A stretch of DNA of 64,000 nucleotides from Zygotorulaspora mrakii (lineage: Eukaryota > Ascomycota > Saccharomycetes > Saccharomycetales > Saccharomycetaceae), in NCBI RefSeq assembly GCF_013402915.1, contig NC_050721.1, forward strand, positions 310,001 to 374,000, given 5' to 3'. Position 1 is the stretch's first letter; every line of letters starts with the position of its first letter. The translations under genes were made by a program, and so were the position numbers. Shown here piece by piece: positions 17,946 through 34,315 of this stretch. The notes under the pieces are model-generated. The model saw only the letters and a program-made list of their open reading frames with translations, searched no databases and was not told where the DNA came from.

Positions 17946-19718
17946 ATGGCAAGGCCTCCGACCATTGCGCAGATTCTATCAAGTAAAAACGCATCTGAGA
18001 ATCCAGTAACGGCTACCAATAATGGTCTGAAAAAACCGAAATTTCTTTCAAAAGCTGAGCGAATTAACTTGGTGAGATCCTTGCACAACCGTGATAGCCC
18101 ACATTTGGTCGTTGAGAACAGTGCTAAACGCGAACGAGAGGAAGATGATACGTCAGACGTAATTAATGAAGCTGACGATCAAAAAAGTACTATGTTTTCT
18201 AAGGCAGACAGGATACAGAAAAAAAGGTCCCAGTTTCAATTCGAGTGGCAGGAGGCAGATGACACTATGTCTGATTACAGACCAATTGTAGAAACCAAAG
18301 CAGCAGCATTGCTGAGTATGAATGGAAGGGCGGATTCCCTAGCAGATTCCTACATGGGTAGACATTGGAGCAAAAAAAAATTGCACGAGATGAATGAGAG
18401 GGATTGGAGAATATTTAGCGAAGATTTTGCCATTCAGACCAAGGGTGGAGATATTGCAAAGCCTATGCGAAATTGGGAGGAATTGAATTTAATTCCAAAA
18501 GATATTCTAGATATTATAACAAAAGACTTGAGGTACAAACAGCCGACATCTATCCAACGAGTCACGATACCCAATGTATGTACGAGAAGAAACAGAGACT
18601 TTTTGGGTGTGGCATCCACCGGTTCTGGTAAAACGCTGGCGTTTATTGTACCCATATTGATTAAAATAACTAAGTCGCAGCCGAGGCCCATTTCACTGAA
18701 GAATGTAGAAGGACCTAAAGCACTAATATTGGCCCCCACAAGAGAATTGGCTCAGCAAATTCAAAAAGAAGCCCAAAAACTTACATCTCTGTTGAATATG
18801 AAAAATACATCTTTCTCCTGTACAGTTATTTCCATTGTCGGCGGACATGCGCTGGGGGAGATAGCACATCAGCTCTCTCAAGGGTGCGATATTATTGTTG
18901 CTACACCTGGCCGTTTGATAGATTGTTTTGAAAATCACTTGTTTTCGACAGATGAAATTGAAACCCTGGTGGTGGACGAAGCTGATAAAATGATCGATAT
19001 GGGGTTTGAGGAACAATTCACCACTATATTATCAAGATTAAATACATCGCGGGAGTTTAAAGCAAGACAAACGCTGATGTTTACTGCAACCATGTCCCCC
19101 ACCATTGAAAAGATTGCCAACGGATATTTAAGTAAACCAGCATACGCAACAATAGGCGGCGGTGAAGAATCAATACCGCAGATCCAACAAATTGTACAGT
19201 ATGTCTCTTCTGAAGATCAAAGGTTTGAAAAAATCAAGAGACTTCTGAATTCAAACGAGGCGCCCATAATTATATTTATCACTTATAAAAAAACAGCCGA
19301 TTGGTTGGCTCAAAAGTTTTTTGAGGAGACCTCTTTCAAAGTAACTATTCTTCATGGCTCAAAATCGCAAGAGCAAAGAGAGCATTCTCTGCAACAACTT
19401 AGAAATGGTAAGTGCCAGATTATGGTTGCGACAAATGTTGCCGCTAGAGGTTTAGATATCCCAAACGTGTCTCTAGTTGTGAATTTTCAAATATCAAAAT
19501 CTTTAGATGATTACGTTCATAGAATTGGTAGAACAGGACGTGCAGGAAAAAAGGGAACGGCAGTTACATTTTTGGGAGATGATGAAAATATTGACATTGT
19601 AAGAGAACTCTACAAATATGTTGAAGTCAATAATCCAGTGAAGACAAATAGTTTTGACAAGTCGCTAAAAACCAGGTACAACCTCGGAAATAACAACTTG
19701 GATGAAATTATATATTAA
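17946..19718 (+). CDS. PRP28: Spliceosomal DEAD-box ATPase Prp28
   Basis: Prp28 displaces U1 from the 5' splice site so that U6 can pair, during spliceosome activation. The 590-residue protein has an N-terminal extension of about 160 residues, a Q motif (QPTSIQR), motif I ASTGSGKT (about 222), APTRELAQQ, TPGRL, motif II DEAD (about 344), motif III as TAT rather than SAT, ARGLD and HRIGRTGRAG. The C-terminal EIIY end matches the S. cerevisiae protein. It converges on AMD2 with only 49 bp between stops. Confidence 0.95.
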   Translation: MARPPTIAQILSSKNASENPVTATNNGLKKPKFLSKAERINLVRSLHNRDSPHLVVENSAKREREEDDTSDVINEADDQKSTMFSKADRIQKKRSQFQFEWQEADDTMSDYRPIVETKAAALLSMNGRADSLADSYMGRHWSKKKLHEMNERDWRIFSEDFAIQTKGGDIAKPMRNWEELNLIPKDILDIITKDLRYKQPTSIQRVTIPNVCTRRNRDFLGVASTGSGKTLAFIVPILIKITKSQPRPISLKNVEGPKALILAPTRELAQQIQKEAQKLTSLLNMKNTSFSCTVISIVGGHALGEIAHQLSQGCDIIVATPGRLIDCFENHLFSTDEIETLVVDEADKMIDMGFEEQFTTILSRLNTSREFKARQTLMFTATMSPTIEKIANGYLSKPAYATIGGGEESIPQIQQIVQYVSSEDQRFEKIKRLLNSNEAPIIIFITYKKTADWLAQKFFEETSFKVTILHGSKSQEQREHSLQQLRNGKCQIMVATNVAARGLDIPNVSLVVNFQISKSLDDYVHRIGRTGRAGKKGTAVTFLGDDENIDIVRELYKYVEVNNPVKTNSFDKSLKTRYNLGNNNLDEIIY

Positions 19719-19767: not shown

Positions 19768-21414
19768 TCAAGAGATTTGCAAATTTTGCATTAGCCATGA
19801 GCCAAATGTGCAAACTTCATTATCGTCGTAAGTCGGACTCATTATCTGTAAAGATAGAGGGAAATCTTGAATGGAATCTGAGGAAATGAGCTCGTTCCAG
19901 TAATTAGATACAATTCTATCCTCTTCAGTTTGCGCTTTTGATGTATCCATCTGACCATCAACATTGCGATTGAATTTCGTAATGGGAACTGCAAGTGACG
20001 GAAAGTTCAAAACGTTTACAAATAAAATGTATCTCAATGTTGTTGCTAGCATGTCTCCTGGCCTAAATGGGGTTAAGGTAAGTGGGCTTATAATAACATC
20101 GGGCCTTTCTGTTGGTTCTAAAGAGTTATAATATTCTCTGTATGCGATTTTGGCTTCGTAAGTCCTTTTATTTAAGGCCCACCATTGATTCACTGAGCAT
20201 GCTTCAGCTCCCTTTTCCAGAATAACCGGTTTCAAAATATCTATTATCGGTTCTCCACTAGCTTCAAACTCACGCCTTATCTCGATTCCTGCATCAGCTA
20301 TGTCCGTATCCATGGCGATTTCATGCAGTTCTTTGTTAACTTCAACAGGGACCTCCCACCTAATCGCTTTCATTCCGAGAGTACTATTGATTAGGTCTTC
20401 GCACATTCTCAACGCTCTTACATCTCCTGGTGGGAGGGTTATTACGCCATCACCGTACCAAATACCAACCACATAGTTTTTATGAAGTTCTTTTGATTTG
20501 CTATCGAAGTGGTACGGCACACACTTCACATCGTCAATCCAGGGTTTGCAAATGTTCACCATAACATCCATAAAATATCTCAAATCATCTAGATTTCTGG
20601 CTAAAGGCCCGATAACACTAGGAATTAGTTCTCTCCCTTGAAATGAATTATCTACGCGCAGATAAGGAAGTCTGCTATCGGTGGGTTTTAGCCCATATAA
20701 TCCATGATAACTGCTCGGTATTCGGATACTACCTCCAATATCTGTTCCTAAGCCTAACAAGGAACCTCTGGCAGCGATAAGAGCTCCTTCACCGCCAGAA
20801 GATCCACCTGGCGAAAAATTCTGATTTAACCCATTCAAGGTTATACCAAACGTATTCGATACGGTATCTGTAGCCATCATAGACGATGGTACTGTTGTTT
20901 TGACGTACAATATTGCACCTTGTTCTCGCAAATGTCTGACAATCAATGACTCTTCCTCTCTTTTCTTTGGTTTGAATGCTCTGCCCAGATAACCGCATGT
21001 ACTATCTACGCCTTCAACGTTACATTGATCCTTCAACGATATCGGTATTCCGTACAAAGGTGGCAAAAAATCGGGTCTCTGTTCATCTAGTTTTTGGGCC
21101 TTCTTTAATGCCTCCTCAAACATGATCTCTGATAAACAATTGATCACTTGGTGAGCCAACGCTGCCCTATGGCAGAATGCAATCGCGATTTCATAGCATG
21201 TTAGATTTTTCACAATTAGTTCATCTCTGAGTTTCAATATCGTAGAATGAGTTATCTCATTCTCCGCTTCTGTGCACAGTTTGTCTAGATTTAGATCCAA
21301 ATTCTTCTTTTCAGCTTTCAAAAGTTCAAGTTTACCACCATCAATTCTCCATTCTGATGGGATTTTAGCATTCAATTGAGCCCTTTTTTTCTCGACATTG
21401 ACTTTCCAAGACAT
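19768..21414 (-). CDS. AMD2: Amidase-signature hydrolase Amd2
   Basis: This is an amidase-signature serine hydrolase that cleaves carboxamides to acid plus ammonia; the natural substrate of yeast Amd2 is not established. The 548-residue length equals S. cerevisiae Amd2. The Ser-cisSer-Lys triad is visible as K128 (in PISLKDQ), S205 (in GGSSGGE) and S229 (in GTDIGGSI), with the 24-residue spacing between serines usual for the family. There is no signal peptide, so it should be cytosolic. It shares a 384-bp divergent promoter with a secreted ureohydrolase. That pairing is absent from S. cerevisiae and hints at a guanidino-amide or similar substrate, which is inference only. Confidence 0.9.
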   Translation of the reverse strand: MSWKVNVEKKRAQLNAKIPSEWRIDGGKLELLKAEKKNLDLNLDKLCTEAENEITHSTILKLRDELIVKNLTCYEIAIAFCHRAALAHQVINCLSEIMFEEALKKAQKLDEQRPDFLPPLYGIPISLKDQCNVEGVDSTCGYLGRAFKPKKREEESLIVRHLREQGAILYVKTTVPSSMMATDTVSNTFGITLNGLNQNFSPGGSSGGEGALIAARGSLLGLGTDIGGSIRIPSSYHGLYGLKPTDSRLPYLRVDNSFQGRELIPSVIGPLARNLDDLRYFMDVMVNICKPWIDDVKCVPYHFDSKSKELHKNYVVGIWYGDGVITLPPGDVRALRMCEDLINSTLGMKAIRWEVPVEVNKELHEIAMDTDIADAGIEIRREFEASGEPIIDILKPVILEKGAEACSVNQWWALNKRTYEAKIAYREYYNSLEPTERPDVIISPLTLTPFRPGDMLATTLRYILFVNVLNFPSLAVPITKFNRNVDGQMDTSKAQTEEDRIVSNYWNELISSDSIQDFPLSLQIMSPTYDDNEVCTFGSWLMQNLQIS

Positions 21415-21798
21415 TATTGCAACTTAGAAAGAGGCTCAACATAGTAGGAACATATAATAGTGTCTAGTTTTGATGCTACCTCGAGCTCTGTCTTTTAGTA
21501 TATATAATATGAACTAGTCATTGAAGAAGCCGCCCAATGCCGCCAGAAATAATTCGTTATCAGCGACATTTAGTTTTTGATCAAAAACAATTATAATCGT
21601 TTGATTTGATCGACATCTGTAAGCATTTATATAGGTCATTACAAGACCTCTCTCGCCGAGGAAGCTCTGAGCGAGAGTAGGCAAAGACGTGAATGTGACT
21701 TACTAGAGATATTTAAATGACTAACACCTTTGGTCATAGGATGCATTCTGCCATGAGCTAGGATACTTAGATCCTGAGACGTCTACATTTCAATTAGC
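21415..21798. promoter_or_regulatory. Divergent promoter of AMD2 and ureohydrolase 1
   Basis: The 384-bp interval contains a perfect 7-bp inverted repeat, CTCTCGC (21650-21656) and GCGAGAG (21671-21677), separated by 14 bp and with no coding explanation. One TTATC (GATAA) site lies at 21557-21561. An AT-rich TATA-like run (tatataatatg) lies near 21500 on the AMD2 side. The inverted repeat resembles a dimeric factor site; the factor is unknown. Confidence 0.45.
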
Positions 21799-22995
21799 AT
21801 GATAATGTTGCATTTGCTTTCATTTATTTCATTCCTAGCCTATACAATATGTTGTTTTGAGATCTCTGAGAAGGAAGACTTGGAAAAAGTCTGGGGTCAA
21901 GATTGGCCATTCAGCGGCATCAATACGTATGCCCATCTACCACACGATAGATGTTTGATAGACAAAAACTTGACCTTCGATGTAGGCATTATTGGTATCC
22001 CATACGACAGTAGCGTTTCTTATCGTCCTGGAGCACGGTTTGGCCCCCAAGCTATTAGAGCTGCATCTCAACGACAGTTTTCATATCGTGGCTTCAATTT
22101 CCGAGCTGGAATAAACCCATATCAGCAGTGGGCTAAAGTGATCGATTGCGGGGACGTTCCGGTAACGCCAATGGACAGTAGCCTGGCACTGAAAATGATG
22201 ACAGCCGCATTTGATAATTTGTTGAGTAGAGAAAGTGCGTATGAGGGAAGCTCCATGCCACCAAGATTAGTGTCTCTAGGAGGTGACCATAGTATTATTC
22301 TCCCCATTATTAGAAATTTGTACAAAGTTTATGGGCCCATTACAGTTCTTCATTTTGATTCTCATTTGGATACTTGGTCACCCGAGAAGTATCCTTCCTA
22401 CTGGCAGAGTGAAGCATCAGAGTTCAATCATGGTTCTATGTTGTGGATGGCTAAAGAAGAGGGACTTTTGTCTGAACATAATATTCATGCTGGTTTAAGA
22501 ACTCGTTTGAGTGGGACTGATTGGTCTGATTACTTAGAGGATGATCATCTTGGTTTTCACAGGATTGAAAGTGATGAAATCCTTAAAATTGGACTAGACG
22601 GCATTATTGGTAAAATCAGACGGTTACTACCGAAAAATTCACCAGTCTATATTAGTGTTGACATTGATGTTTTAGATCCAAGTGCTGCACCAGGGACAGG
22701 AACTGTTGAAGTAGGTGGTTGGTTGACCAGAGAACTTGTGTATATCTTGCGCTCCTTGGAGGACGTCTTTATAGTCGGCGCTGATGTTGTAGAAGTATCC
22801 CCTCCTTTTGATCAAAGTGAAATAACTGCTCTAGCAGCCTCTCAAATAGTATATGAGTTGGTGACTTCAATGGTCAAGGGTGGCCCAATCGATCCAGATA
22901 TGGTCAAGGCAAATATTGAAGGTGCTCCTGAACTTTCGAATGACGAAAGTAAAGTTTTTTTTGAGGATGCAAGAGAGGGGGAGTTTTTGAAATGA
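21799..22995 (+). CDS. Secreted ureohydrolase (agmatinase/guanidinobutyrase-like) 1
   Basis: This is a manganese ureohydrolase of the arginase/agmatinase family, expected to release urea from a guanidino compound. In 398 residues the metal ligands are intact: H164 (GGDH), D187, H189 and D191 (DSHLD), D288 and D290 (SVDIDVLDP). The substrate loop [11 protein letters not shown] follows. [13 protein letters not shown] is a hallmark of the agmatinase branch rather than arginase. The hydrophobic N-terminus (about 4-19) followed by CC-F looks like a signal peptide, so it probably enters the secretory path. S. cerevisiae has no counterpart. A related enzyme lies at 31250-32563. Agmatine, guanidinobutyrate or another substrate cannot be told apart from sequence. 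Confidence 0.85.
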
Positions 22996-23428
22996 ATGAA
23001 TTACGTAAAAAGCTGAAATTCGGTCGTACATGTCTCGCATCCTGCATCTCGTAATGTTTGTTATGATATATCTTTCATTATTTAATTTTCTTTAGTTACG
23101 CTTCAAACGTTTTCTATTCGGTATCTGATTTCCCGATAACATAAACCTTCTGCACTGGTGAAATGGAGTTCTTTCAGGTTCCCGCTATGCAGTCCTTTCA
23201 AACAAAAAGAGAGTTAATGGTGAAGCCGAATTTTCGTAAAAGTGGTGATAAAGCTAGCAGCTATACTCAAGTAAATCATATCATATACATTCAGTCCATT
23301 CATAAACTCGGCACGTTGGAACACATTATATATCGCAGGTGTGCATTCTAAACGTGGTTTTGGAGCAAATCGGCCGCTCCCATGCTTCCAAGGACTCAGA
23401 AGTGTCGTCACAACGACTTTCGTTAAAA
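22996..23428. other. Intergenic between ureohydrolase 1 and CWC2
   Basis: A 433-bp tail-to-tail interval. Only short frames (up to about 62 codons) and no RNA gene signatures are seen. Confidence 0.6.
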
Positions 23429-24433
23429 TTACTCCTCCTCAGACGAAGAAGGATAGTCAACAAGACCATTACTGGTACCATTCAATTCCAATAGCTTTGA
23501 TATTTTCAAAGATGCAACAGTCTCAGGATTTGCCTTTCTCTTTTTCAGTTTCTGAAGAGTTTTTTCATCAAAAAGTGTTGCTTTGTCTTGTGACAATTTC
23601 TTAATCGATTCGTGCTTCTCCTCCACAGTTAACTGCTCACTTTGACGTTTACCGAAATTATTCAATAGTTTAACCATCATATTGAGCGATTCTTCCTTCT
23701 GTTCTTCCTCTTCTCTTTTGCGAGCCTCTGGGTCGGGATCGTCGTTTCCCCACTTAACGAGTAGTCCCGCTCCCTCTTTGCGATCTGCCCATTCTTTGTC
23801 AGACGGTATTAGTAAAGTCTGGTTGCTCATTGCTTCCTTGGCGAACTCCGTATTGCATTGGTGTCTGTATTTCACGAATGCACAGTTTTTGCTCTCTATG
23901 TATCTTACCCTATCAATTTCTCCCAACTTTGAAAAGATATATCTCAAACGGCCCTCGATTTGTGACGGTTTCAACTGTTTATTGTTTAAAGCTCCACTTA
24001 GTCCGCCAATATATAAAGTTCGGTTGTTTTTCCTAAATGAACCAACGCCCCCCATATCATCTCTGTAGTCTGCGAATTTTTCACGACCAAAACAATCCAA
24101 CACATCTGTTTTCATCGATAGTTGCATGATATCCTGTTCTTCCGGTATATGATGCTTGTACTGACATTTTTTCCCCAAACAGCACATTCCCTTGGCAAAA
24201 TATAGGCAAAAAAAATTGGTGTTTTCCTTGTCACCTCTAGTTACACCCGGATGTACCTTTGTGTCCAACCTGAAGGGATTGACAAATCTGCGCTGACCAC
24301 CTTGACCTTGAGACCATTTGTTATACCATACGTTGAACACTAATCCCGTCTGCGCCGGCATAGAGGAGGGCAATTCGCGTTCATCAACCTGTACTCGGGC
24401 TGATCGGTCTCTCCAAGATTTGCTCTTCGACAT
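23429..24433 (-). CDS. CWC2: Splicing factor Cwc2
   Basis: Cwc2 is an NTC-associated protein that contacts U6 snRNA and links the NineTeen complex to the spliceosome core. In 334 residues there is the N-terminal Torus-type start (GLVFNVWYNKWSQGQ), a CCCH zinc finger with C76, C84, C90 and H94 (C-x7-C-x5-C-x3-H), and an RRM at about 137-215 (TLYIGGL, NCAFVKY). A charged C-terminal tail ends in an acidic serine run. Length is almost that of S. cerevisiae (339). The ATG is about 225 bp from the tRNA-Tyr gene on the same strand. Confidence 0.95.
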   Translation of the reverse strand: MSKSKSWRDRSARVQVDERELPSSMPAQTGLVFNVWYNKWSQGQGGQRRFVNPFRLDTKVHPGVTRGDKENTNFFCLYFAKGMCCLGKKCQYKHHIPEEQDIMQLSMKTDVLDCFGREKFADYRDDMGGVGSFRKNNRTLYIGGLSGALNNKQLKPSQIEGRLRYIFSKLGEIDRVRYIESKNCAFVKYRHQCNTEFAKEAMSNQTLLIPSDKEWADRKEGAGLLVKWGNDDPDPEARKREEEEQKEESLNMMVKLLNNFGKRQSEQLTVEEKHESIKKLSQDKATLFDEKTLQKLKKRKANPETVASLKISKLLELNGTSNGLVDYPSSSEEE

Positions 24434-24559
24434 GCTGAAATTTTGGATCTACAGTAAGTTATCTCACAGTATATATTAGCGTAATCGTAGAGTTTCTAAT
24501 GAGATGAGCTGTGATTTTACTTTTGTACAAATCGTGAAAAAAAAAAAATAAAAAAATTA

Positions 24560-24658
24560 TCTCCCGGGGGCGAGTCGAACGCCCGATCTCAAGATTACTT
24601 TGTTGTTTTACAACACACATTACAGTCTTGCGCCTTAAACCAACTTGGCTACCGAGAG
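24560..24658 (-). tRNA. tRNA-Tyr (GUA) with 24-nt intron
   Basis: The minus strand reads CTCTCGGTAGCC...GGGAGA, with A box GTAGCCAAGTTGG and B box GTTCGACTC. The mature sequence is essentially that of S. cerevisiae tRNA-Tyr. The anticodon loop CUGUAAA is interrupted one base 3' of the GTA anticodon by an intron at about 24596-24619 (24 nt; S. cerevisiae has about 14). The 99-nt gene minus 24 gives the expected 75. A long T run on the transcribed strand immediately follows (24539-24558) and serves as Pol III terminator. Confidence 0.97.
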
Positions 24659-25862
24659 TATAAATATCTTACTAAGATCAAGAAACGTTATACACATACG
24701 ATAATAAGAAATGGACTATGTCTCCGTGACTCTTTATGGAGAGTTAGGTTGACAGGGACCTAAGTATCTAGAAAGAATGTTTCTATTGGAGAGAAGGGTT
24801 TCTACGGAGTTATTGATAATAACTTGGTTAGACATTGATGACATTCTGCACCTATTGAATCATAACCAGCATAATGCATAAAACATCTACTCTCTGCAGT
24901 TTATAGGTCGTGCTGCTATGACGCTATATTTCTAGTCTACCAGAATCTATAGCACAACTCGTTATTTCTTATTTCATGCCGTAGATTCCTCCGTAGCCAG
25001 ATCGCTAAATTGTAAGTGGCTCGCGATAAAACATCAGTTGACGACTTTTCAGAGTCATATTATGTTAGAAGGTGCTTCACCCGACTATAGTTCTTCTGCT
25101 GTGTTATTGCACCGGTCTCTTTTGTTAGTCTTCTCAGGTCATCTCGTAGAAAAATCTTGTTTCTACCATAATCTCAGTCTATATTTCAACATCTAACCAC
25201 GTAATCGCGAACAACTCCGAAAATTGTTCAATCACCAACCGTATACTTCTCAAGGTCGTACGGACGCATCTCAGATCTGACAACATTTGTCTAACGACTG
25301 GCACGCTTGTAGACGAAAAATCTATCTACTCGAATCCACATCTGTTCTGTGGTTTTTCATATTGATTTGGACATGATTTGCTATTCCAAAGGGATACCCA
25401 GATAACGTTTATTCATCTCGGTCATGCTTTCACGTATCTATTACACGAAACGTACTCAATCAAAAATATCATTTTGAGGTCAGCATTGCACGCAAATGCC
25501 ACACATTGTCCAATTCGTCACTTCTGGCGATAATTAAGAGTCCATGGGTACTAATCTATATCTCGAACTGATGAAAAATGATGTGATTATCACACACTGC
25601 AGAAAGTCCTTACTTTCAAAAAAATGCAAATTAGGATTTTTACTATGTTTTCAACCCGTGTTTTATATTTTTCTACGTAGATTACTGTCTGACTTATTAA
25701 ACCTTGAATTACGTACTGTCTTCCGTCAAAACTTCATATGTTCATACATGGTTTTCACCTCATCACGGCAAGTACAGTTTTTGAAAGCTTGTAAAAAATG
25801 CATGTAAGCCTTCGAAAAATGAACGAAAAAAGAGAACTTATATATCAAGCATTGTCCTGTTG
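24659..25862. other. Gene-free interval upstream of PRP6
   Basis: About 1.2 kb between the tRNA-Tyr 5' end and PRP6. The region upstream of a tRNA gene is where Ty elements insert in yeasts, so I looked for a solo LTR, but no clear TG...CA boundary with a target duplication is visible; a decayed copy cannot be excluded. One ATG-started 87-codon frame (25544-25807) ends 55 bp before PRP6 and is probably part of its leader. Confidence 0.5.
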
Positions 25863-28529
25863 ATGATCAGACCTTCTTTTTTACATCAAGAAGCTCCACC
25901 GGGATACATTCCTGGTGTAGGACGTGGGGCAACAGGCTTTTCCACCAGAGGCAATACAACTAAAGTCCCCAAAAGACTCCAAGACAGCAATTCAACTCGT
26001 ACATTTGAAACTAAGGATACATTTACCCAAGAACGGTTCTCTACTAATGTCGAGCTAGAAGAAGAGCAAGAGGCCGACGAAATCTTTGCTTCAGTGGATG
26101 CAAAATTAGCCAAGGGAAAGAATTCCAATAAGAGTTCGTCATATCATAATAATGAAACTACAGGACCTAATAAAGTACTGCAACAATTTGCTGATTTGAA
26201 AAGATCCCTTGCAAATGTTACAGCGGAAGAATGGCTCAATATACCAGAAGCTGGAGATATAACAAAGAGACACAAGAGGGAAAGAACTCAAAATCAATTG
26301 AATAGGAAAGAGTATGCGGCACCCGATTCTCTTATTCATTCAACAGGAAACGTGAATTTGTCAAAATTGACTCAAGAGAGAGAAAGGCTCCTGGTTAGTC
26401 AATTAGATTCCAGTATATTAAATCGTGATAAAGTAGATTCCATGGAGTTGGCTGAAACAAATCAGTTATTAAATGAACTTGAATCTTCCTCTAAACCAAG
26501 TGAATTATTGAATAATGGTCAAAATGAAGATTCGAAAAAGATGAGAGATATTCTGGTATTGTATAGAAAAGCAGATCCTACCAAGCCAGAAGGTTGGATT
26601 GCTTCCGCACGATTAGAAGAAAAGGCGCGTAGACTGAACGCAGCAAAAGATATTATCGATCAAGGTTGTCAAAAATGCCCCAAAAATGAGGATATATGGT
26701 TGGAAAACTTAAGAATAAACGGCTCCAATTCAACTTTGTGTAAGGCTATGGTTGCCGAAGCAATCGCATATAATCCTACTTCTCTACCATTATGGTCGAA
26801 AGCTGTTGATCTAGAAGCCGAAACTCTTAATAAATGCAGAGTCATCCGGAAAGCATTACGAGAACTGCCGCGTAGTGAAGATTTATGGACGTTGATTGTG
26901 AAATACGAATCAGACACATCGGAGCGCGAAAAGATTTTGAAGAAAGCTGTAGAATTCGTTCCTCAAAGCTTTAATTTGTGGAAATGCTTAATAGATCTGC
27001 AAGATGAGATATCTGCTAAAAAATCAATGAACCAACTAAGAGTATTGCAACCGAAAGAGTTTAAGGTTTGGATTTTAGCAGCACAAGTTGAAGAACGTTT
27101 CAATGCTCAAGTAACAATTGAAAGACTAGTTAAACTATTGATTAAAGGTAGAAATGAACTTGAAAAGTATGGTATCACCATTTCAGCGTTCGAATGGATT
27201 ACACAAGCTGAAGAATTAGAGAAAATGCTAATATCACCAAAAGTTGTAGAGAGTCTTATAATATCGTCAATACAAGGTGAATATAACGATAAAGGCGATT
27301 TGATTCTCTTTAAATTTATAGAATCCATGAGTGATAGTCGTACAAAGATCATTGCCCTTAGAGTACTCTTGAAGAAGAGCCCCACCAACTATGATATTTG
27401 GAAGCATCTTAAAGCAACATGTGAAAAGCTCAAACAGATAAATGAACTGTACACAACCTTTGAAGATGTCATATTTTCTGAAAGCAAAGATTCCATTGCA
27501 CTCAAAGAAAACCCTGTATTGGCTTTGATGTATTCAAAAGAAATATGGAAAGGCGCTAATAATACAAGTAGAGCTTTGGAAATTCTTGATAGAACTTTGA
27601 AATTAGTTCCAAGAACGCTGGATATATGGTTGGCCAAAATAAAAATACTTTGCTTTTCCTCAAGCTTTGAGGAAGCAGAGAAGACATTTTTGAATGCTCT
27701 GCATTACTTTGAATCGACCGAACCTTTCCCTGGGCTTCAAAGACTTTATCACAAGTATGTTAATTTCTTACGGTTTCAGAATCGTAATTCCGATGGTATT
27801 TCGTTCATAAAAGAGACGTGCCAAAAGAAATTCCCAGATTGCCCCATCTTCCAGATTCAAATGGGCCAGATACTTCATGATATGGCAGATATCGAAAAAT
27901 GTCGGGAGACCTTTAGTACAGGCACAAAATATTTTCCCTCGTGTGCAATCTTATGGATGCAACTAGCTCTGGTTGATGAGATTGACATGGGGAAACCCAC
28001 AAAGGCCAGATCTGACTTGGACCTAGCCGTTTTGAAAAATCCACAAGAGGAGTCCCTGTACCTGGCAAAAATTAGACTGGAAACCAAGCTCAATAATCTG
28101 GACCAGGCAAGATTGATCGTTTCTCAATCCCTACAAAAATTCCCACGAAGTCCAAAATTATGGTCTGAGAATATTCGTTTACTTCCATCCAAAAAATCCC
28201 CTCTTCGTAAAACTGTATTCCAAGATGCCCTCAAGAATACAGCCAACAGTTGTGAGGTGCTAGTAGAGATCGGAGTATCCTTTTACTATGAATCACAATT
28301 CTCCACTGCCCTCAAATGGTTTCAGCGAGCTACTGCCAAGAATAAACTTTATGGCGATGCATGGGTATGGCTGACGCGATGCCATAAGAAACTTTCTAAA
28401 GATATTCACGAATGCCATGAGAAGGTGAACGAGTATGAGCCTGTTTACGGCGACGAGTGGATTTCGGTCTCGAAGGGCGTTAAGAATCAATACAGCTCTC
28501 CGTCTACAATTCTGAGTATTTTAAGTTAA
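25863..28529 (+). CDS. PRP6: U4/U6-U5 tri-snRNP splicing factor Prp6
   Basis: Prp6 is the helical-repeat scaffold that bridges U5 and U4/U6 in the tri-snRNP. The first ATG (25863) gives 888 residues starting MIRPSFLHQEAPPGYIPGVGRGATGF, the family N-terminus. An open frame one codon longer starts with TTG and is not used. An acidic, low-complexity segment follows. QFADLKRSL and EEWLNIPEAGD come next, then TPR/HAT-type repeats from about residue 230 to the end (for example PEGWIASARLEEKARRL, LWLQ-type helices, YGDAWVWLTRCHKKL). It is followed in tandem by LYS14. Confidence 0.96.
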   Translation: MIRPSFLHQEAPPGYIPGVGRGATGFSTRGNTTKVPKRLQDSNSTRTFETKDTFTQERFSTNVELEEEQEADEIFASVDAKLAKGKNSNKSSSYHNNETTGPNKVLQQFADLKRSLANVTAEEWLNIPEAGDITKRHKRERTQNQLNRKEYAAPDSLIHSTGNVNLSKLTQERERLLVSQLDSSILNRDKVDSMELAETNQLLNELESSSKPSELLNNGQNEDSKKMRDILVLYRKADPTKPEGWIASARLEEKARRLNAAKDIIDQGCQKCPKNEDIWLENLRINGSNSTLCKAMVAEAIAYNPTSLPLWSKAVDLEAETLNKCRVIRKALRELPRSEDLWTLIVKYESDTSEREKILKKAVEFVPQSFNLWKCLIDLQDEISAKKSMNQLRVLQPKEFKVWILAAQVEERFNAQVTIERLVKLLIKGRNELEKYGITISAFEWITQAEELEKMLISPKVVESLIISSIQGEYNDKGDLILFKFIESMSDSRTKIIALRVLLKKSPTNYDIWKHLKATCEKLKQINELYTTFEDVIFSESKDSIALKENPVLALMYSKEIWKGANNTSRALEILDRTLKLVPRTLDIWLAKIKILCFSSSFEEAEKTFLNALHYFESTEPFPGLQRLYHKYVNFLRFQNRNSDGISFIKETCQKKFPDCPIFQIQMGQILHDMADIEKCRETFSTGTKYFPSCAILWMQLALVDEIDMGKPTKARSDLDLAVLKNPQEESLYLAKIRLETKLNNLDQARLIVSQSLQKFPRSPKLWSENIRLLPSKKSPLRKTVFQDALKNTANSCEVLVEIGVSFYYESQFSTALKWFQRATAKNKLYGDAWVWLTRCHKKLSKDIHECHEKVNEYEPVYGDEWISVSKGVKNQYSSPSTILSILS

Positions 28530-28793
28530 TCTTATCCACTAGTGTGTTCCATTCTGCTGTGGTTTGTGGATGTTCTTCTTGAAATCGCGAGATAAAATTT
28601 TCTGTTATCCCGAAGGAATTTTTGTCGAAGTTCGGAAAGTCGAATAGTTGTCGATGCAAAAGCCTGTGAAGTAAGCTGGTTCAGTCATATCGTATCTCCC
28701 TATTAGGTGAATTGCGGGAGTCACCCATTGTAAATAATAACGTCATAAATTTCAAAAAGGTTATCCAACTTGATCTTCGATTTTTTTTTTTTG

Positions 28794-31178
28794 ATGTCAG
28801 AGGGAAATGACTATAGAAGTAATTTCATCGATATTGATGGAAAAGATCCCTCGTCAGCTGTCAGAACTCCACAAAATTTCTTATCACCGGATTCTTTAGA
28901 CAGCACCACTTCCTTCCTGAGTTCTGAGAGATTTGAAGGAAATATTTTTGTCAATAGAAGCGGTAAAACTCCACCACTTTCCAAATTTACAAGCGTGAAC
29001 GAGGGCCACAGTAAATCAAATTTAGCAGGTTATAAAGCGATGAATACTGCAATCGCACATGGTCCGGACGAATACAGCGTTGCGCAGGAAGCTGTAGATT
29101 CTAAATATGTATCCGGACCTTCTACAAGTATTACATCAACGGTGAAAGACGCAAATGGGCAAGTCAAAAGAAAGTACTCGAGAAATGGATGTGTCGAGTG
29201 CAAGAGGAGGCGAATAAAATGTGACGAAACAAAACCATCTTGCTGGCAGTGCGCGAGGTTGAATCGCGAATGCATCTATATTTCGAATCCAAAGAACAAG
29301 AAGCGAAAGCCCAAGAAAGGCTCTGTTGAAAAGCCCCTGCTGAAAAATGAATCAGAAAAGTCCACCTTAAAGAAAGAGCACTCTGAGGATTTCGCCGGTA
29401 AGCAAGCAACAATTACCTCAAATACCTCGCACACGGTTCCCACTACAGCAGTTACGCTTGCTCCTCTTACTACAAATGCACCTACCGCTACTACCACCAA
29501 CGCTACTGGCACTCATATTGAGGAGCTGCCGACTGTCGGGGTCACTTCTGTAGCTTGTGCTAATAATGTTGAAGAAAATAATAGTATCACTAAGTCAGCA
29601 ACACTCCCGAATGCTAACGCACCTGTCTCTAACATGGACGGTTACGATGCTAATCTTTTAATTCAGAACTTGAATGACATAGTCAGCATGAAACTCAATG
29701 ACTCATTTCTTCTTAACGAGAGCTTGAAGGATTTGCGATTACCAGAGCTTGATATTCCGGAGTTGTTACCTCAGACTGCGGATCCTGTAAGTTCTGTGCC
29801 CATTTCATTTTTAGTCAACAATGTCATAACTTTCAATACCAAGCTGAGTTCCTTTCAATTGGGTGGAGTTCACGATGGGTATCTCAAAGTTTTCTTTAAT
29901 GATTGTTTGGACTCTATTGCCCCCTTTTTTCAAAATCAGGAAAATCCATTGAGGGATATTATTCTTTCCTTTGCACGAAATGAGTCCTACTTACTATCAG
30001 CAACTTTGGCTGTTGGTGCTTCGATTGCAAACCGAAAATCTGCATCGCTTGAAGATGAGCGAAATTACTGTGCGTACTTATCACATTGTCTTAGCTTGCT
30101 GGGCGAGCAATTTCAAAATGAAGCAAACGTGCTAAACAAAATAGAGCCAATAACTTTTACAGTAATAATGCTTGCATGGGACTGTATCAATACGATGAAC
30201 TCCCAATGGAGATCCCATTTGAAAGGTGTTACTGACCTTTTTAAGAAGATCAACTCTGGGAACTCCTCAAAAGTCATGAATGTGGCCAAATGCTGGTTCA
30301 AAGTCATGGAAACATTTGCAAGCGTTAGCACAGTTCTAGGCGGATCAGTCACAGATGAAGATGATCTAGATCTAATTTTTGATCCATATGATTATCAGTA
30401 CGTCGACTCTTTGAAGTTTTTGAACATCATGACGCCATTGAATGAATTCAATTTGCTCAGGGGTCAAAAAGAAGATTTTGATTTGGTTATTAAAGAAGTT
30501 ATAAAAGCTCTCACATGCATACGAAAAGCGGAAAAGAACTACATGTCACAGGAGGAGGGGCTTTTCACAAAAAACCAGGATTATCTGTTGTGGTCATCAC
30601 ATCAAGATACCGAAAAGACTAAAGAATCCCTCTCGTATTTTAAGATTCAAAAAATCTTGGTTGAAATTGATAAACAATTGGAATATGAATTCATAGACAA
30701 GTCTGGGGTAATACCCCTGGAAAGTCAGTCACATCCAGACAGGAGTAGTATTGATGACAACGCTATTGATGTAGTTATTTTGAGAAATAGCGATCGAATC
30801 GCGATCAGCTGGTATGATATTTCTCATCAAACACAGGTTCTTTCCTTTCTACTAATTGTTCTATTGAAACTCCTCGGAATTCCTAAGGAGTCAATAACTG
30901 TTCAACAAGTTGTAAAGAAAATCATGTCATTCTTTAAATTTCTGAACAGTGACAATCCACCTCAAAATAATAGAACCTGTTACAGTAATTTCGCTGTTCT
31001 GATGGCAGGTTTGAATGCGATGGATGAGGATACAAGAAACATTGTACGAACCTACTATAAAGTGAATGGTGGCAAATTTCAAAGACTGACTGAGCACAAC
31101 TTAAATAGATTGGAAAGCGTATGGTACGGCAAAGGGGGTAACTATAAACTTGCTGATCAAGATGTTTTAACGTGGTAA
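28794..31178 (+). CDS. LYS14: Zn2Cys6 activator of lysine biosynthesis Lys14
   Basis: Lys14 activates LYS genes in response to alpha-aminoadipate semialdehyde. The first ATG gives 794 residues; the frame is open further upstream only through a TTG. The zinc cluster lies at about 130-162 (NGCVECKRRRIKCDETKPSC plus CARLNREC) and is nearly identical to S. cerevisiae. A Thr/Ala-rich linker (about 200-280) is variable. The long C-terminal regulatory part (about 290-794) is highly conserved, including VPISFLVNNVITFNTKLSSF and the final QDVLTW. The ATG sits directly after a 12-base T run (28781-28792), an unusual context. Its neighbour MRH1 is the S. cerevisiae neighbour, but here two extra genes intervene. 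Confidence 0.96.
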   Translation: MSEGNDYRSNFIDIDGKDPSSAVRTPQNFLSPDSLDSTTSFLSSERFEGNIFVNRSGKTPPLSKFTSVNEGHSKSNLAGYKAMNTAIAHGPDEYSVAQEAVDSKYVSGPSTSITSTVKDANGQVKRKYSRNGCVECKRRRIKCDETKPSCWQCARLNRECIYISNPKNKKRKPKKGSVEKPLLKNESEKSTLKKEHSEDFAGKQATITSNTSHTVPTTAVTLAPLTTNAPTATTTNATGTHIEELPTVGVTSVACANNVEENNSITKSATLPNANAPVSNMDGYDANLLIQNLNDIVSMKLNDSFLLNESLKDLRLPELDIPELLPQTADPVSSVPISFLVNNVITFNTKLSSFQLGGVHDGYLKVFFNDCLDSIAPFFQNQENPLRDIILSFARNESYLLSATLAVGASIANRKSASLEDERNYCAYLSHCLSLLGEQFQNEANVLNKIEPITFTVIMLAWDCINTMNSQWRSHLKGVTDLFKKINSGNSSKVMNVAKCWFKVMETFASVSTVLGGSVTDEDDLDLIFDPYDYQYVDSLKFLNIMTPLNEFNLLRGQKEDFDLVIKEVIKALTCIRKAEKNYMSQEEGLFTKNQDYLLWSSHQDTEKTKESLSYFKIQKILVEIDKQLEYEFIDKSGVIPLESQSHPDRSSIDDNAIDVVILRNSDRIAISWYDISHQTQVLSFLLIVLLKLLGIPKESITVQQVVKKIMSFFKFLNSDNPPQNNRTCYSNFAVLMAGLNAMDEDTRNIVRTYYKVNGGKFQRLTEHNLNRLESVWYGKGGNYKLADQDVLTW

Positions 31179-31249
31179 AGATGTGTAAATGTATTTTATT
31201 TAATAAAGAGGCAAGATTTGCGTAATATCCTCTATCATGTAAAACATAC

Positions 31250-32563
31250 TTATTCTACAGTCATCAAACCGATGAAGGAATCAACTACACTAGCCGCTGT
31301 GATTACAGTGATATCACCGTTGGAATCATATGCTGGCGCAACCTCTACGACATCGGCGCCAACAAGATTAATCCCCTCCAATCCATCCAAAATGGTTAAA
31401 GCTTCTCTTGCTGTGAATCCACCTGGTTCTGGAGTACCTGTTCCAGGAGCAGATGCAATATCCAAGACATCGATATCAAATGTTATATATACTGGCAAGT
31501 CGCCAATTCTTTTCTTGATCTGATCGACCACGCCTCGGATACCTATGATGTCGATATCCCTGGAAACAATTTTCTCAAATCCACATTCACGGTCGTGTAA
31601 ATCATCATGAGAATCAATATAAGGACCCCTGATCCCAACATGGATAGCACTATTGTTTGCAAGATAGCCTTTTTCGTGAGCATAATGTAAAAACGTACCA
31701 TGGTTTAAGCGTGCCCTCTTGGAAACACCGCCACCTAAGACATCCGGAGACCAGCTATCAATGTGTGAATCGAAATGAACAACAGCCAATGGACCAAATT
31801 TCTCATACGCAGACCTCAGAGCCATCAACGTGATAGTATGATCGCCTCCTAGTGTGATGATTCTTGGAGGCTTTTCGGGCTCTTTAAGACTCGGGTGATT
31901 GTGTATCTTTCTCTGACCCCTGTACAGCTGATTGAGGGCTACCCTATTGTCAAAGGGAGTCATGGGAATGTCACCACAATCGGCAATCTTGTATGAAGAA
32001 TTATAAGGATTCAAGAGCCGTAACTTTGAGCCTGGGAAGCCTCTCACTGGAGAGATACCTGAACCTATCCTGCGACTACCCTGCCTGATTCCATTAGGGC
32101 CAAATCTAGCTCCTGGGCGATAAGTTGTAGCAGTATCGAAGGGTGCCCCGACAATTACAATATCTGCATTTAGCTCGTCTTCAGCAAAACATTTAACCGC
32201 AGGCAAATGCGCAAACGTGACAATCCCACTGAAGAAGAATAAGTCCTTCATGTATGTGTCTAATGGCAGTACAACTGGATTTTCGTTGAAAAATCCACAT
32301 TGTGCTTTAAAATCAGGATCTTCATCCTCCATGACATCAATTTGACTGCTTACTGACACAAAATCCTCCGAATTGCAATCTAATCGAGGTTTCAAAAGCT
32401 CACCAAACAATTGGTCAATAAAAGGTGCAACACTATTCTTTCCAACATCATTCAATCTCAGATCATCTTCCTTGTTCACCCAAAACGATTCTTCATGACC
32501 TGCGTATCTACCTTCAGCAATTGCTGAACACGTCAAAGCTGTCCACAAGTATGAAAGCCTCAT
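31250..32563 (-). CDS. Secreted ureohydrolase (agmatinase/guanidinobutyrase-like) 2
   Basis: A second Mn2+ ureohydrolase, 437 residues from its first ATG (the open frame extends three codons to a TTG). The N-terminus MRLSYLWTALTCSAIAEG looks like a cleavable signal peptide. An extra segment of about 70 residues (30-100) separates it from the catalytic domain. Ligands are intact: H242 (GGDH), D265, H267 and D269 (DSHID), D363 and D365. The proline after the last motif aspartate is replaced by isoleucine (FDIDVLDIAS instead of VLDP), unlike paralog 1. The substrate loop PGTGTPEPGGF is agmatinase-like. It is divergent from a MATE transporter. Without an S. cerevisiae ortholog the substrate is open; K. 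lactis Gbu1-type guanidinobutyrase is a candidate family. Confidence 0.87.
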   Translation of the reverse strand: MRLSYLWTALTCSAIAEGRYAGHEESFWVNKEDDLRLNDVGKNSVAPFIDQLFGELLKPRLDCNSEDFVSVSSQIDVMEDEDPDFKAQCGFFNENPVVLPLDTYMKDLFFFSGIVTFAHLPAVKCFAEDELNADIVIVGAPFDTATTYRPGARFGPNGIRQGSRRIGSGISPVRGFPGSKLRLLNPYNSSYKIADCGDIPMTPFDNRVALNQLYRGQRKIHNHPSLKEPEKPPRIITLGGDHTITLMALRSAYEKFGPLAVVHFDSHIDSWSPDVLGGGVSKRARLNHGTFLHYAHEKGYLANNSAIHVGIRGPYIDSHDDLHDRECGFEKIVSRDIDIIGIRGVVDQIKKRIGDLPVYITFDIDVLDIASAPGTGTPEPGGFTAREALTILDGLEGINLVGADVVEVAPAYDSNGDITVITAASVVDSFIGLMTVE

Positions 32564-32866
32564 TATACTCAATTTTGACCGGCATTCTCAATCATAAAGG
32601 ATAATCCCTCTGGCAGATTCCTGATAATGGATGTGTATTATTGTTTTTATAATTGGCTTACCATCCGTAATCATTTTTAATCTGTTACTTCCATATAACC
32701 GTCAAAGGAAAGTCTGCACGAGCTCAAACACCGCGTTTAAATGTTGAGTCATGGCATTGTGTCAAAATATGAATAGCATAAAGAGGAAGAGTACCCAGTT
32801 GGTTTCAATGTTGTCTATCGCGTTCACTAGAGTCCATGGTCTATAATTGTTCGATTAAACTTCAGA
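32564..32866. promoter_or_regulatory. Divergent promoter of ureohydrolase 2 and MATE transporter
   Basis: The 303-bp shared promoter contains two GATAA sites in the same orientation at 32600-32604 and 32623-32627, 23 bp apart. That is the spacing typical of UAS-NTR elements bound by Gln3/Gat1 under nitrogen catabolite repression. They lie 37-64 bp from the ureohydrolase 2 ATG. The sites are seen; nitrogen control is inferred. Confidence 0.5.
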
Positions 32867-34315
32867 ATGACGCTTTCTCGCATTGATGAAGAGCTTTCAA
32901 GTGATGAAACTGAGGAAACGCAGCCCCTGCTTTATCCTGAAAAAAAATGGTCAAGCGTAAGCAATGAATTAAGCATAGTGCTGCTGAATGCAATGCCACT
33001 GACGGTAACATTTCTCTTACAAGGATCTATCCCATCTATGCCTCTACTTTTTGTTGGGAGACTTGATGCCTTACAACTCGGCGGTGTTGCAATAGCTAAT
33101 GTTACATTCACAGTATCAGTTGCTGTTTTTCTGGGCCTTACTACTTCATTAGATACGTTGTGTCCGCAGGCATTTGGTGCTCGTCAGTATAAGCTCGTTG
33201 GACTGTACCTCCAGCGTTGCGTCATTCTGGCTTTTGCAATAGCAATACCGATGATACTCGCTTGGGTATATTCCGGTTGTATACTGATCCATTTCATCGA
33301 TAATCCTGAAATTGTAAAGATTGCATCAAGCTATTTGCGTCTGATGACATTTTCTTTGCCAGGTTTTATTATATTTGAATGTGGGAAAAGATACTTCCAG
33401 TCAATGAATAATTTCACTAAAGGTCAATATATACTGTTCATATGTGCTCCTTTTAATGCTGTTCTGGGCTACGTCATGATTTTGAGATTTCAGTTAGGAT
33501 ACGTTGGTGCATGCTGTTCCTTGATTTTTACCTACAACTTGATGGGACTCATTATGGCCATATCAATCTATTTCTGCCATATTGACATGAAGAGGAATAC
33601 CCCTGACCTTGATTGCTGGCATGAAGTCTCTAGCAAAGTTTTTGATGGTTGGAGCACTATGATAGAACTCTCCCTTCCAGGAATCATTATGGTTGAATCA
33701 GAGTTTTTTGCTTTCGAGTTTACATCTATTCTAGCTGCAAGATTTGGTACAACTGTATTAGCGGCTCAATCGATTGCATCAACAGTAGAATCCTTAACAT
33801 TCCAAATCCCATTCTCTGTTGGTGTTGCAGCATCAAACAGAATTGCCTTCCATATCGGACAAGGCAACATTCGAAATTGTAAAACTGCGGTAGGTTGTAC
33901 GTTGGTTTATATTGGTACTGTTCTATGTTTATTGAATTTTTCTCTATTAACTTTCGGTAGATATGTCATAGCTAAGCTTTTCACCAGTGATCCAGAGGTA
34001 ATTTCTTCAACTGTTCCATTAATCAGTATAATTGCTGTAAACCAATTTTGGGACATCTTCAACGTATTCGGCGCTGCCTGTTTAAGAGCGCAGGGTAGGC
34101 AAAGAATCGGCGGATGTTTTAGTCTTATCGCATACTATGTAATTGGATTGCCACTTGGAGTGTATTTGGGATTTAAGAAGCACTTAGGTGCCCGGGGGTT
34201 CTGGATTGGTATTGGCACAGGTATTTTCTTCCTGTCAATTACCGAATTGATGTGTGTCTATAGATCAAACTGGACAAAAATTCTTCAAACAGCAAAAAAA
34301 ATGCATAACTACTAG
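32867..34315 (+). CDS. MATE-family multidrug/organic cation transporter
   Basis: This is a multi-pass membrane transporter of the MATE family, whose members exchange organic cations or other small molecules for protons. The 482-residue product has about 12 hydrophobic helices. The family core is seen in ELSIVLLNAMPLTVTFLLQ, ALQLGGVAIAN, LDTLCPQAFGARQ near 105-115, GIIMVESEFFAFEFTSIL, and GVAASNRIAFHIGQGN. It is closest in type to yeast Erc1 and YDR338C but lacks their long N-terminal cytosolic extension. It lies between LYS14 and MRH1, adjacent in S. cerevisiae, so with ureohydrolase 2 it is an extra block. It may export or import the ureohydrolase substrate or product, by inference from the shared promoter. 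Confidence 0.85.
   Translation: MTLSRIDEELSSDETEETQPLLYPEKKWSSVSNELSIVLLNAMPLTVTFLLQGSIPSMPLLFVGRLDALQLGGVAIANVTFTVSVAVFLGLTTSLDTLCPQAFGARQYKLVGLYLQRCVILAFAIAIPMILAWVYSGCILIHFIDNPEIVKIASSYLRLMTFSLPGFIIFECGKRYFQSMNNFTKGQYILFICAPFNAVLGYVMILRFQLGYVGACCSLIFTYNLMGLIMAISIYFCHIDMKRNTPDLDCWHEVSSKVFDGWSTMIELSLPGIIMVESEFFAFEFTSILAARFGTTVLAAQSIASTVESLTFQIPFSVGVAASNRIAFHIGQGNIRNCKTAVGCTLVYIGTVLCLLNFSLLTFGRYVIAKLFTSDPEVISSTVPLISIIAVNQFWDIFNVFGAACLRAQGRQRIGGCFSLIAYYVIGLPLGVYLGFKKHLGARGFWIGIGTGIFFLSITELMCVYRSNWTKILQTAKKMHNY

What the first reader, a model, noticed from the sequence alone, without database searches (positions are those of the whole stretch)
19768..34315. Split cluster: amidase, two secreted ureohydrolases and a MATE transporter
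Two agmatinase-branch ureohydrolases, both with apparent signal peptides and intact Mn ligands, lie 8 kb apart. Each is divergent from a small-molecule gene: AMD2 amidase for one, a MATE transporter for the other. S. cerevisiae has neither ureohydrolase. Established: agmatinase-branch enzymes release urea, and amidases release ammonia from amides. Inference: the four genes may handle one guanidino compound (for example guanidinobutyramide to guanidinobutyrate to GABA plus urea), with steps outside the cytosol or in the vacuole. The four intervening genes (CWC2, tRNA-Tyr, PRP6, LYS14) are conserved housekeeping genes.
Basis: partly seen in the sequence, partly recalled or inferred. Interest (0 to 1): 0.75.

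Follow-up and report, generated by a model that had tools for sequence, protein, structure and literature searches.

The report
Yeast lumenal ureohydrolases, one MATE-paired
In a budding yeast, two enzymes that probably enter the secretory pathway and split urea off guanidino compounds lie near each other most likely by chance, but one of them shares its promoter region with a membrane transporter in an arrangement that recurs elsewhere in the same genome, hinting at a small transport-and-degrade module.

Summary
In detail: AMD2 amidase, two agmatinase-branch ureohydrolases (URH1, URH2) with signal-peptide-like starts and all metal ligands, and a MATE transporter lie at the stated coordinates. 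The genome is almost surely Zygotorulaspora mrakii.

The four-gene, one-pathway reading is not supported. URH1 (probably GBU1-type) and URH2 (probably AGT1-type) fall in two old clades and are not neighbours in any of eight other Saccharomycetaceae checkable from locus tags or contig lengths. AMD2 shows no signal peptide, and no other intact agmatinase-branch locus in the genome has an amidase within 100 kb.

The URH2-MATE divergent pair looks real. At C3:619427-622756 URH3 is divergent from a second MATE, flanked by a Zn2Cys6 regulator whose best relative among those compared is LYS14, the neighbour of URH2, and by an NCS1 permease. URH3 is not a recent copy of URH2 (AU p 0.005 and 1e-5). In S. 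pombe, consecutively numbered genes SPAC11D3.06-.09 encode a vacuolar protein (MATE, by recall), a transcription factor, an amino acid permease and an agmatinase.

Best reading: lumenal ureohydrolases scavenge guanidino compounds, and the MATE moves substrate or product for the AGT1 type. Substrates, location and co-regulation are inferred.

The parts
17946..19718 (+). DEAD-box helicase, PRP28 type; convergent neighbour of AMD2 (the same neighbour as in S. cerevisiae, by recall)
   Evidence: DEAD, Helicase_C, weak DDX23-like
19768..21414 (-). AMD2 amidase orthologue, no signal peptide; a neighbour, not part of the proposed module
   Evidence: (63% to S. cerevisiae Amd2p)
21415..21798 (.). 384-bp divergent region AMD2|URH1; no shared motif found
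21799..22995 (+). URH1: ureohydrolase, probably GBU1-type, with clear signal peptide; beyond residue 19 only two cysteines (52, 117), both invariant in 240 of 240 listed homologues
23429..24433 (-). CWC2-type splicing factor (Torus + RRM), bystander
24560..24658 (-). intron-containing tRNA, read by eye as tRNA-Tyr (GTA); ARAGORN with introns calls it Asn
25863..28529 (+). PRP6-type splicing factor, bystander
28794..31178 (+). LYS14-type Zn2Cys6 regulator, convergent with URH2; its best relative among the genome's PF11951 genes compared (27.8% over 503 aa; Zn cluster 22 of 31 identical) flanks the second ureohydrolase/MATE pair
31250..32563 (-). URH2: ureohydrolase, probably AGT1-type, signal-peptide-like start
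32564..32866 (.). 303-bp divergent region URH2|MATE1 (2 GATAA, 4 GATTA by motif scan; pattern not shared with the second pair)
32867..34315 (+). MATE1: MATE-family transporter, one of four found in the genome
34688..35635 (-). rhodopsin-fold protein of the MRH1/YRO2 type (name recalled), flank

Best explanation
URH1 and URH2 are two separately conserved yeast ureohydrolases of the secretory pathway (probably GBU1 type and AGT1 type). They enter the ER by an N-terminal signal, fold with a likely conserved disulfide, bind two Mn ions and split urea from small guanidino compounds (guanidinobutyrate, agmatine or similar) outside the cytosol, so the cell can use them as nitrogen. Their 8-kb proximity and the AMD2 neighbour are accidents of this lineage. 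URH2 and MATE1 form a true divergent pair: the MATE, an organic-cation/proton antiporter family, moves the guanidino substrate into, or the amine product across, the membrane of the compartment that holds the enzyme (vacuole most likely, by the S. pombe case). A local LYS14-family regulator may control such pairs. Shown: genes, families, ligand residues, recurrence in this genome, tree. Inferred: location, metal, substrates, transport direction, regulation.
For: Genome: C6 length 1250112 equals that of the contig bearing Z. mrakii HG535_0F06340. Recurrence: 2 of 4 MATE genes are divergent from a ureohydrolase; the second locus reads TF3 - URH3 - MATE2 - NCS1 permease. TF3 is the best relative of LYS14 among 8 of the 9 PF11951 matches and has a full Zn cluster across a 68-bp intron-like stretch. 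URH1 and URH2 clades split at 100/100; URH3 lies outside all other URH2-type sequences in the 33-row tree (99/94; unresolved in the 69-row tree). AU tests reject URH3 with Saccharomycetaceae URH2 (p 0.005) and as sister of URH2 (p 1.35e-5). Secretory: hydrophobic start in 106 of 120 URH1 hits and 108 of 120 URH2 hits listed, against 1 of 120 amidase hits; two invariant Cys in 240 of 240. C. albicans AGT1 and GBU1 are predicted secreted; gbu1 mutants fail on guanidinobutyrate and the gbu1 agt1 double mutant on agmatine (PMC7439472, passages). S. pombe: SPAC11D3.06-GFP marks vacuoles (PMC6857596).07c TF (PMC4614384).08c amino acid permease (PMC5990653).09 agmatinase (PMC3229568), all seen as passages. 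Human MATE1 carries agmatine (PMC12340637, passage).
Against: No gene order from any other yeast could be read on sequence, so the URH2-MATE pair is seen in one genome. No motif is shared by the divergent regions beyond chance. MATE2 is closer to MATE4 (42%) than to MATE1 (40%). URH2 itself fails my hydropathy mark and the arginase CAR1 passes it (1.89), so that mark is crude. Sequon density shows no contrast with amidases. The URH2 list has a third invariant Cys (120 of 120), so its disulfide pairing is not unique. URH3 has a long branch. The GBU1/AGT1 naming rests on Candida-group relatives, and the length ranges of the two types overlap (362-505 and 385-515 aa). That SPAC11D3.06 is a MATE is recalled, and that the four S. 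pombe genes adjoin is taken from systematic names.
Confidence: 0.55

Rival explanations
1. All neighbours are ordinary: an ancient block (LYS14-like TF, ureohydrolase, MATE) was duplicated once and both copies drifted, so the pairing says nothing about function.
For: TF3/LYS14, URH3/URH2 and MATE2/MATE1 are all homologous. With one independent event the chance of a MATE beside a ureohydrolase is about 1% (it assumes 5000 genes, and the families were chosen after the fact).
Against: Divergence is deep (53%, 40% and 28% identity), no DNA similarity between the second locus and the window was found at the set threshold, and yet both pairs stayed divergent neighbours. If the two arrangements arose independently the chance is about 2-3e-5 (same assumptions).
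Confidence: 0.25
2. One reading: the four genes act on one guanidino compound (guanidinobutyramide to guanidinobutyrate to GABA and urea).
For: Physical proximity; two enzyme classes of the right chemistry.
Against: The two ureohydrolase types are not neighbours in 8 of 8 checkable Saccharomycetaceae; AMD2 without signal peptide; no amidase within 100 kb of any other intact agmatinase-branch locus; no evident arginine monooxygenase.
Confidence: 0.06
3. The MATE works at the plasma membrane: it expels a guanidino compound or polyamine as detoxification, and the secreted ureohydrolase degrades it in the cell wall space.
For: The best solved relatives of MATE1 are human-type MATE protein 1 and plant DETOXIFICATION 14 efflux proteins; secretory signal; PMC7439472 (passage) proposes scavenging by extracellular breakdown.
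Against: The S. pombe protein numbered next to an agmatinase marks vacuoles. NCS1 and amino acid permeases at other ureohydrolase loci point to uptake.
Confidence: 0.14

Closest known systems
C. albicans AGT1 (orf19.5862) and GBU1 (orf19.3418); K. lactis GBU1
   Same: An agmatinase and a guanidinobutyrase, both predicted secreted (PMC7439472, passages); C. parapsilosis likewise has homologues of 367 and 438 aa (PMC10833137, passages)
   Different: No linkage to a MATE or to AMD2 is mentioned in the passages read; here the two lie 8 kb apart and the genome carries five intact agmatinase-branch genes
S. pombe SPAC11D3.06-.09 gene row
   Same: Vacuolar protein (MATE by recall), transcription factor, permease and agmatinase with consecutive systematic numbers
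   Different: Gene order and MATE identity not checked on sequence; has an amino acid permease where the second Z. mrakii locus has an NCS1 permease
Human MATE1 (SLC47A1)
   Same: Same transporter family; agmatine and guanidine among reported substrates (PMC12340637, PMC4417677, passages)
   Different: Renal and biliary excretion of organic cations in man; substrate of the yeast protein untested
Pseudomonas gbuA/gpuA catabolic loci
   Same: Guanidino-acid ureohydrolases (PDB 3nio, 3nip are homologues) with a linked transporter (recalled)
   Different: Bacterial, cytosolic, sodium-solute symporter rather than MATE (recalled)

Membership tests
Ureohydrolase superfamily (arginase fold, PF00491) | Domain match above cut-off with six metal ligands | tested here: met
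   275.6 and 281.9 bits against cut-off 22; all ligand columns intact
Agmatinase equivalog (TIGR01230) / agmatinase subfamily (NF002564) | Score above curated cut-off | tested here: not met
   164.8/162.7 bits against 174.3; 244.3/246 against 302. These models are made for prokaryotes; specificity cannot be called agmatinase from them
GBU1-type yeast guanidinobutyrase (URH1) | Same clade as characterised GBU1 | tested here: inconclusive
   clade with Candida/Lodderomyces proteins of 366-376 aa, as C. parapsilosis GBase (367 aa), but also with members of 433-480 aa; no characterised sequence was in the tree
GBU1-type yeast guanidinobutyrase (URH1) | Hydrolysis of 4-guanidinobutyrate | not testable with these tools
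   needs an assay
AGT1-type yeast agmatinase (URH2) | Same clade as C. albicans AGT1 | tested here: inconclusive
   clade with C. auris (448 aa) and others; C. albicans AGT1 itself not in the tree
Secreted/lumenal protein | N-terminal signal peptide | tested here: inconclusive
   URH1 clear, URH2 below mark; 106 of 120 and 108 of 120 listed relatives above it; CAR1 also above; SignalP not available
Secreted/lumenal protein | Conserved disulfide | tested here: inconclusive
   two Cys invariant in 240 of 240, the only two of URH1 beyond residue 19; bonding not shown; a third invariant Cys in the URH2 list
MATE transporter | TIGR00797/PF01554 above cut-off | tested here: met
   218.4 bits against 147.4; two MatE stretches, 174.4 bits against 24.9
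AMD2 amidase orthologue | Closest to AMD2 rather than to other yeast amidases | tested here: met
   63-64% to Saccharomyces Amd2, against 37% for the same yeast's C6 amidase; no tree made
Metabolic gene cluster (AMD2+URH1+URH2+MATE) | Linkage kept across species | tested here: not met
   URH1/URH2 types not neighbours in 8 of 8 checkable Saccharomycetaceae; AMD2 and MATE linkage elsewhere could not be read; Kuraishia capsulata has both types on one contig at unknown distance

The most novel reading that the evidence does not exclude
Yeasts carry an old lumenal guanidine-processing module: a MATE antiporter loads guanidino cations into the vacuole or secretory lumen, where a disulfide-bearing Mn ureohydrolase splits them, under a LYS14-family regulator encoded alongside. 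LYS14 of lysine biosynthesis would then descend from, and in this lineage still sit beside, the local regulator of this module. The S. pombe SPAC11D3.06-.09 row would be an independent survivor.
Probability: 0.25. Interest if true: 0.7.

Novelty: new variant of a known kind. Interest (0 to 1): 0.45.

Why it matters
Agmatinase and guanidinobutyrase of fungi are called secreted on prediction in the one paper I saw on it (PMC7439472, passages), and how substrate meets enzyme is open there. A recurrent MATE partner gives a concrete, testable answer (transport into the enzyme's compartment), suggests a substrate class for uncharacterised yeast MATEs, and offers a possible ancestral role for LYS14-family regulators; the one search for LYS14 together with agmatinase listed 2 papers, neither on yeast by title.

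Tried and rejected
Common nitrogen-control (GATA), Lys14-like and Zn-cluster motifs in the divergent regions (motifs recalled): no consistent pattern. Shared 8- and 9-mers between four divergent regions: none of the 12 comparisons beyond chance (lowest p 0.08). Recent block duplication inside Saccharomycetaceae: rejected by AU test, with the caveat of URH3's long branch. Horizontal gain of the URH3 block: base composition is like its surroundings (0.413 against 0.401) and grouping with Trichomonascus/Blastobotrys/Magnusiomyces was disfavoured (p 0.033); not excluded. Arginine monooxygenase for the amide route: no clear candidate. One viral-contig scan for other genomic contexts: 24 pattern matches, none confirmed. 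Rfam on the window: nothing at gathering threshold. Sequon density as a sign of secretion: no contrast with amidases (0.40, 0.46, 0.49 per 100 aa). LYS14 plus agmatinase in papers: 2 listed, neither relevant by title. K. lactis and L. thermotolerans locus tags: 1 paper, no gene order. The published ends of C. parapsilosis GBase (from its primers, paper, seen) matched no listed protein. No structure prediction was run, since no coordinates come back for a disulfide distance.
Full report
What is there. The window is bases 310001-374000 of contig C3 of a 10.45-Mb genome in nine contigs. Contig C6 is 1250112 bases long, the length of the longest contig listed for Zygotorulaspora mrakii HG535_0F06340, and that 546-aa protein starts with the same 40 residues as the 546-aa C6 amidase. 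C3 is 1318115 long, as is the longest contig listed for the window's own AMD2. So the organism is almost surely Z. mrakii. URH1 and URH2 keep all ligand columns.

The enzymes. The search for each ureohydrolase returned 7974 and 7965 matches among capped candidates, of which the best 120 each are listed. Trees of 69 proteins (30 and 34 of the two lists of 120, plus five own) and of 33 (7 and 22, plus four own) separate URH1-type and URH2-type sequences at 100/100; both types span budding yeasts. C. parapsilosis has a characterised guanidinobutyrase of 367 aa and a second homologue of 438 aa (PMC10833137, passages). Its relatives C. verbasci, Lodderomyces beijingensis and two jiufengensis-group Candida in the URH1 list have 366-376 aa, and C. 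auris in the URH2 clade has 448 aa. So URH1 is probably GBU1-type and URH2 AGT1-type. This is an inference: the lengths of the two lists overlap (362-505 and 385-515 aa) and no characterised sequence was in the trees. NCBIfam agmatinase models match both below their cut-offs, and the best solved relatives are proclavaminate amidinohydrolase, guanidinopropionase, agmatinase and guanidinobutyrase with similar scores, so substrates cannot be read from sequence.

Location. A crude test (best 9-residue hydropathy in the first 30 residues, mark 1.8) is passed by 106 of 120 URH1 hits and 108 of 120 URH2 hits and by 1 of 120 amidase hits. URH1 scores 2.41, URH3 2.23 and URH4 3.09; URH2 only 1.56, while the arginase CAR1 passes at 1.89, so the test is weak for single proteins. 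Two cysteines are invariant in 240 of 240 listed sequences and are the only ones of URH1 beyond residue 19; the arginase lacks them. The URH2 list has a third invariant cysteine. Published work already predicts AGT1 and GBU1 of C. albicans to be secreted (PMC7439472, passages). The compartment beyond the ER is not shown, and sequon density gives no support.

The four-gene cluster. In none are they near each other. Outside that family both lists name ten further species; in nine the contig lengths listed differ (for C. anglica and O. parapolymorpha the entry stands for several contigs, so this is not strict), and in Kuraishia capsulata both lie on a contig of the same length, at unknown distance. 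AMD2 is kept by Saccharomyces, next to PRP28 there as here (recalled). None of the other three intact agmatinase-branch loci (URH3, and the URH4 copies on C2 and C7) has an amidase match within 100 kb (counts of large families are lower bounds).

The pair that recurs. The genome has four MATE genes (eight half-matches) and five intact agmatinase-branch ureohydrolases, one arginase and one broken copy. Two MATE genes are divergent from a ureohydrolase: MATE1/URH2 in the window and MATE2/URH3 at C3:619427-622756. The second locus also holds a Fungal_trans_2 regulator (TF3) next to URH3 and an NCS1 permease next to MATE2. Among 8 of the 9 PF11951 matches compared (one had no locus), TF3 is the best relative of LYS14 (27.8% over 503 aa); every other pair among the eight aligns over at most 170 aa. 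An upstream exon before a 68-bp stretch with GTATGT, AACTAAC and TAG gives a complete Zn cluster, 22 of 31 residues identical to LYS14. LYS14 is the neighbour of URH2. If independent, two of four MATE genes beside a ureohydrolase would have a chance of about 2-3e-5; as one event, about 1% (5000 genes assumed, families chosen after the fact).

Age of the pair. In the 33-row tree URH3 falls outside all other URH2-type sequences (99/94); in the 69-row tree its place is unresolved near the base. AU tests reject URH3 with Saccharomycetaceae URH2 (p 0.005) and as sister of URH2 (p 1.35e-5). So the pair is old and twice kept, was assembled twice, or one copy came from outside. The MATE proteins do not settle it: MATE1's best match is MATE2, but MATE2's is MATE4. 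In S. pombe, passages show SPAC11D3.06-GFP as a vacuolar marker (PMC6857596).07c as a predicted transcription factor in a table of a nitrogen-limitation study (PMC4614384).08c as a predicted amino acid permease (PMC5990653) and .09 as a predicted agmatinase (PMC3229568). That .06 is a MATE is recalled; adjacency is taken from the numbers.

Mechanism. Human MATE1 carries agmatine, by one passage (PMC12340637). A proton antiporter of this family on the vacuole would bring guanidino cations to a lumenal ureohydrolase, giving urea and an amine; efflux to a secreted enzyme is the main alternative. Other ureohydrolase loci carry uptake-type permeases: URH4 is divergent from an NCS1 permease, with an amino acid permease nearby. 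No shared promoter motif was found, so joint control is unproven.

Verdict. The enzymes are known kinds. The proximity of the two ureohydrolases and of AMD2 is most likely coincidental. I found no report of the AGT1-type ureohydrolase/MATE pair with a LYS14-family neighbour in the listings (56 papers, 25 listed); of those papers I opened only passages of some. It deserves a gene-order check across yeasts.

Noticed in passing
G000:C2:1383000-1394748 and G000:C7:1148628-1160376 (L025-L028): A block of at least 11.7 kb near the ends of two chromosomes is 99.93% identical (its left end is set by what was fetched); it carries URH4 (URH1-type), an NCS1 permease and an amino acid permease.
   Followed up: partly
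G000:C3:32960-33834 (L033): A URH1-type ureohydrolase copy near a chromosome end is broken: it is matched in two separate pieces, the first 46 profile positions unmatched.
   Followed up: partly
G000:C3:618879-619426 (L029): The TF3 regulator gene has an intron-like stretch inside its Zn-cluster coding region.
   Followed up: yes
G000:C2:2039-4931: Near another chromosome end, a Fungal_trans_2 regulator lies next to an NCS1 permease related to those at the ureohydrolase loci (42-44% identity).
   Followed up: no
G000:C5:36193-37077 (L016): An amidase gene about 36 kb from the start of C5 has a signal-peptide-like start (MKVQYSVALLYALSLANA).
   Followed up: no
window 45543-45638: ARAGORN calls a tRNA-Thr on the minus strand inside the 1119-aa reading frame 43407-46766; probably a false call.
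   Followed up: no
G000:C2:1397586-1399001 (L026): A class-III aminotransferase (471 aa) lies about 4 kb from URH4 on C2; it could use an amine product, but the C7 contig ends before the corresponding place.
   Followed up: partly
Lachancea nothofagi (proteins P0006, P0012): This yeast has two URH1-type ureohydrolases, one with a low tag number (LANO_0B00166) that suggests a place near a chromosome end.
   Followed up: no
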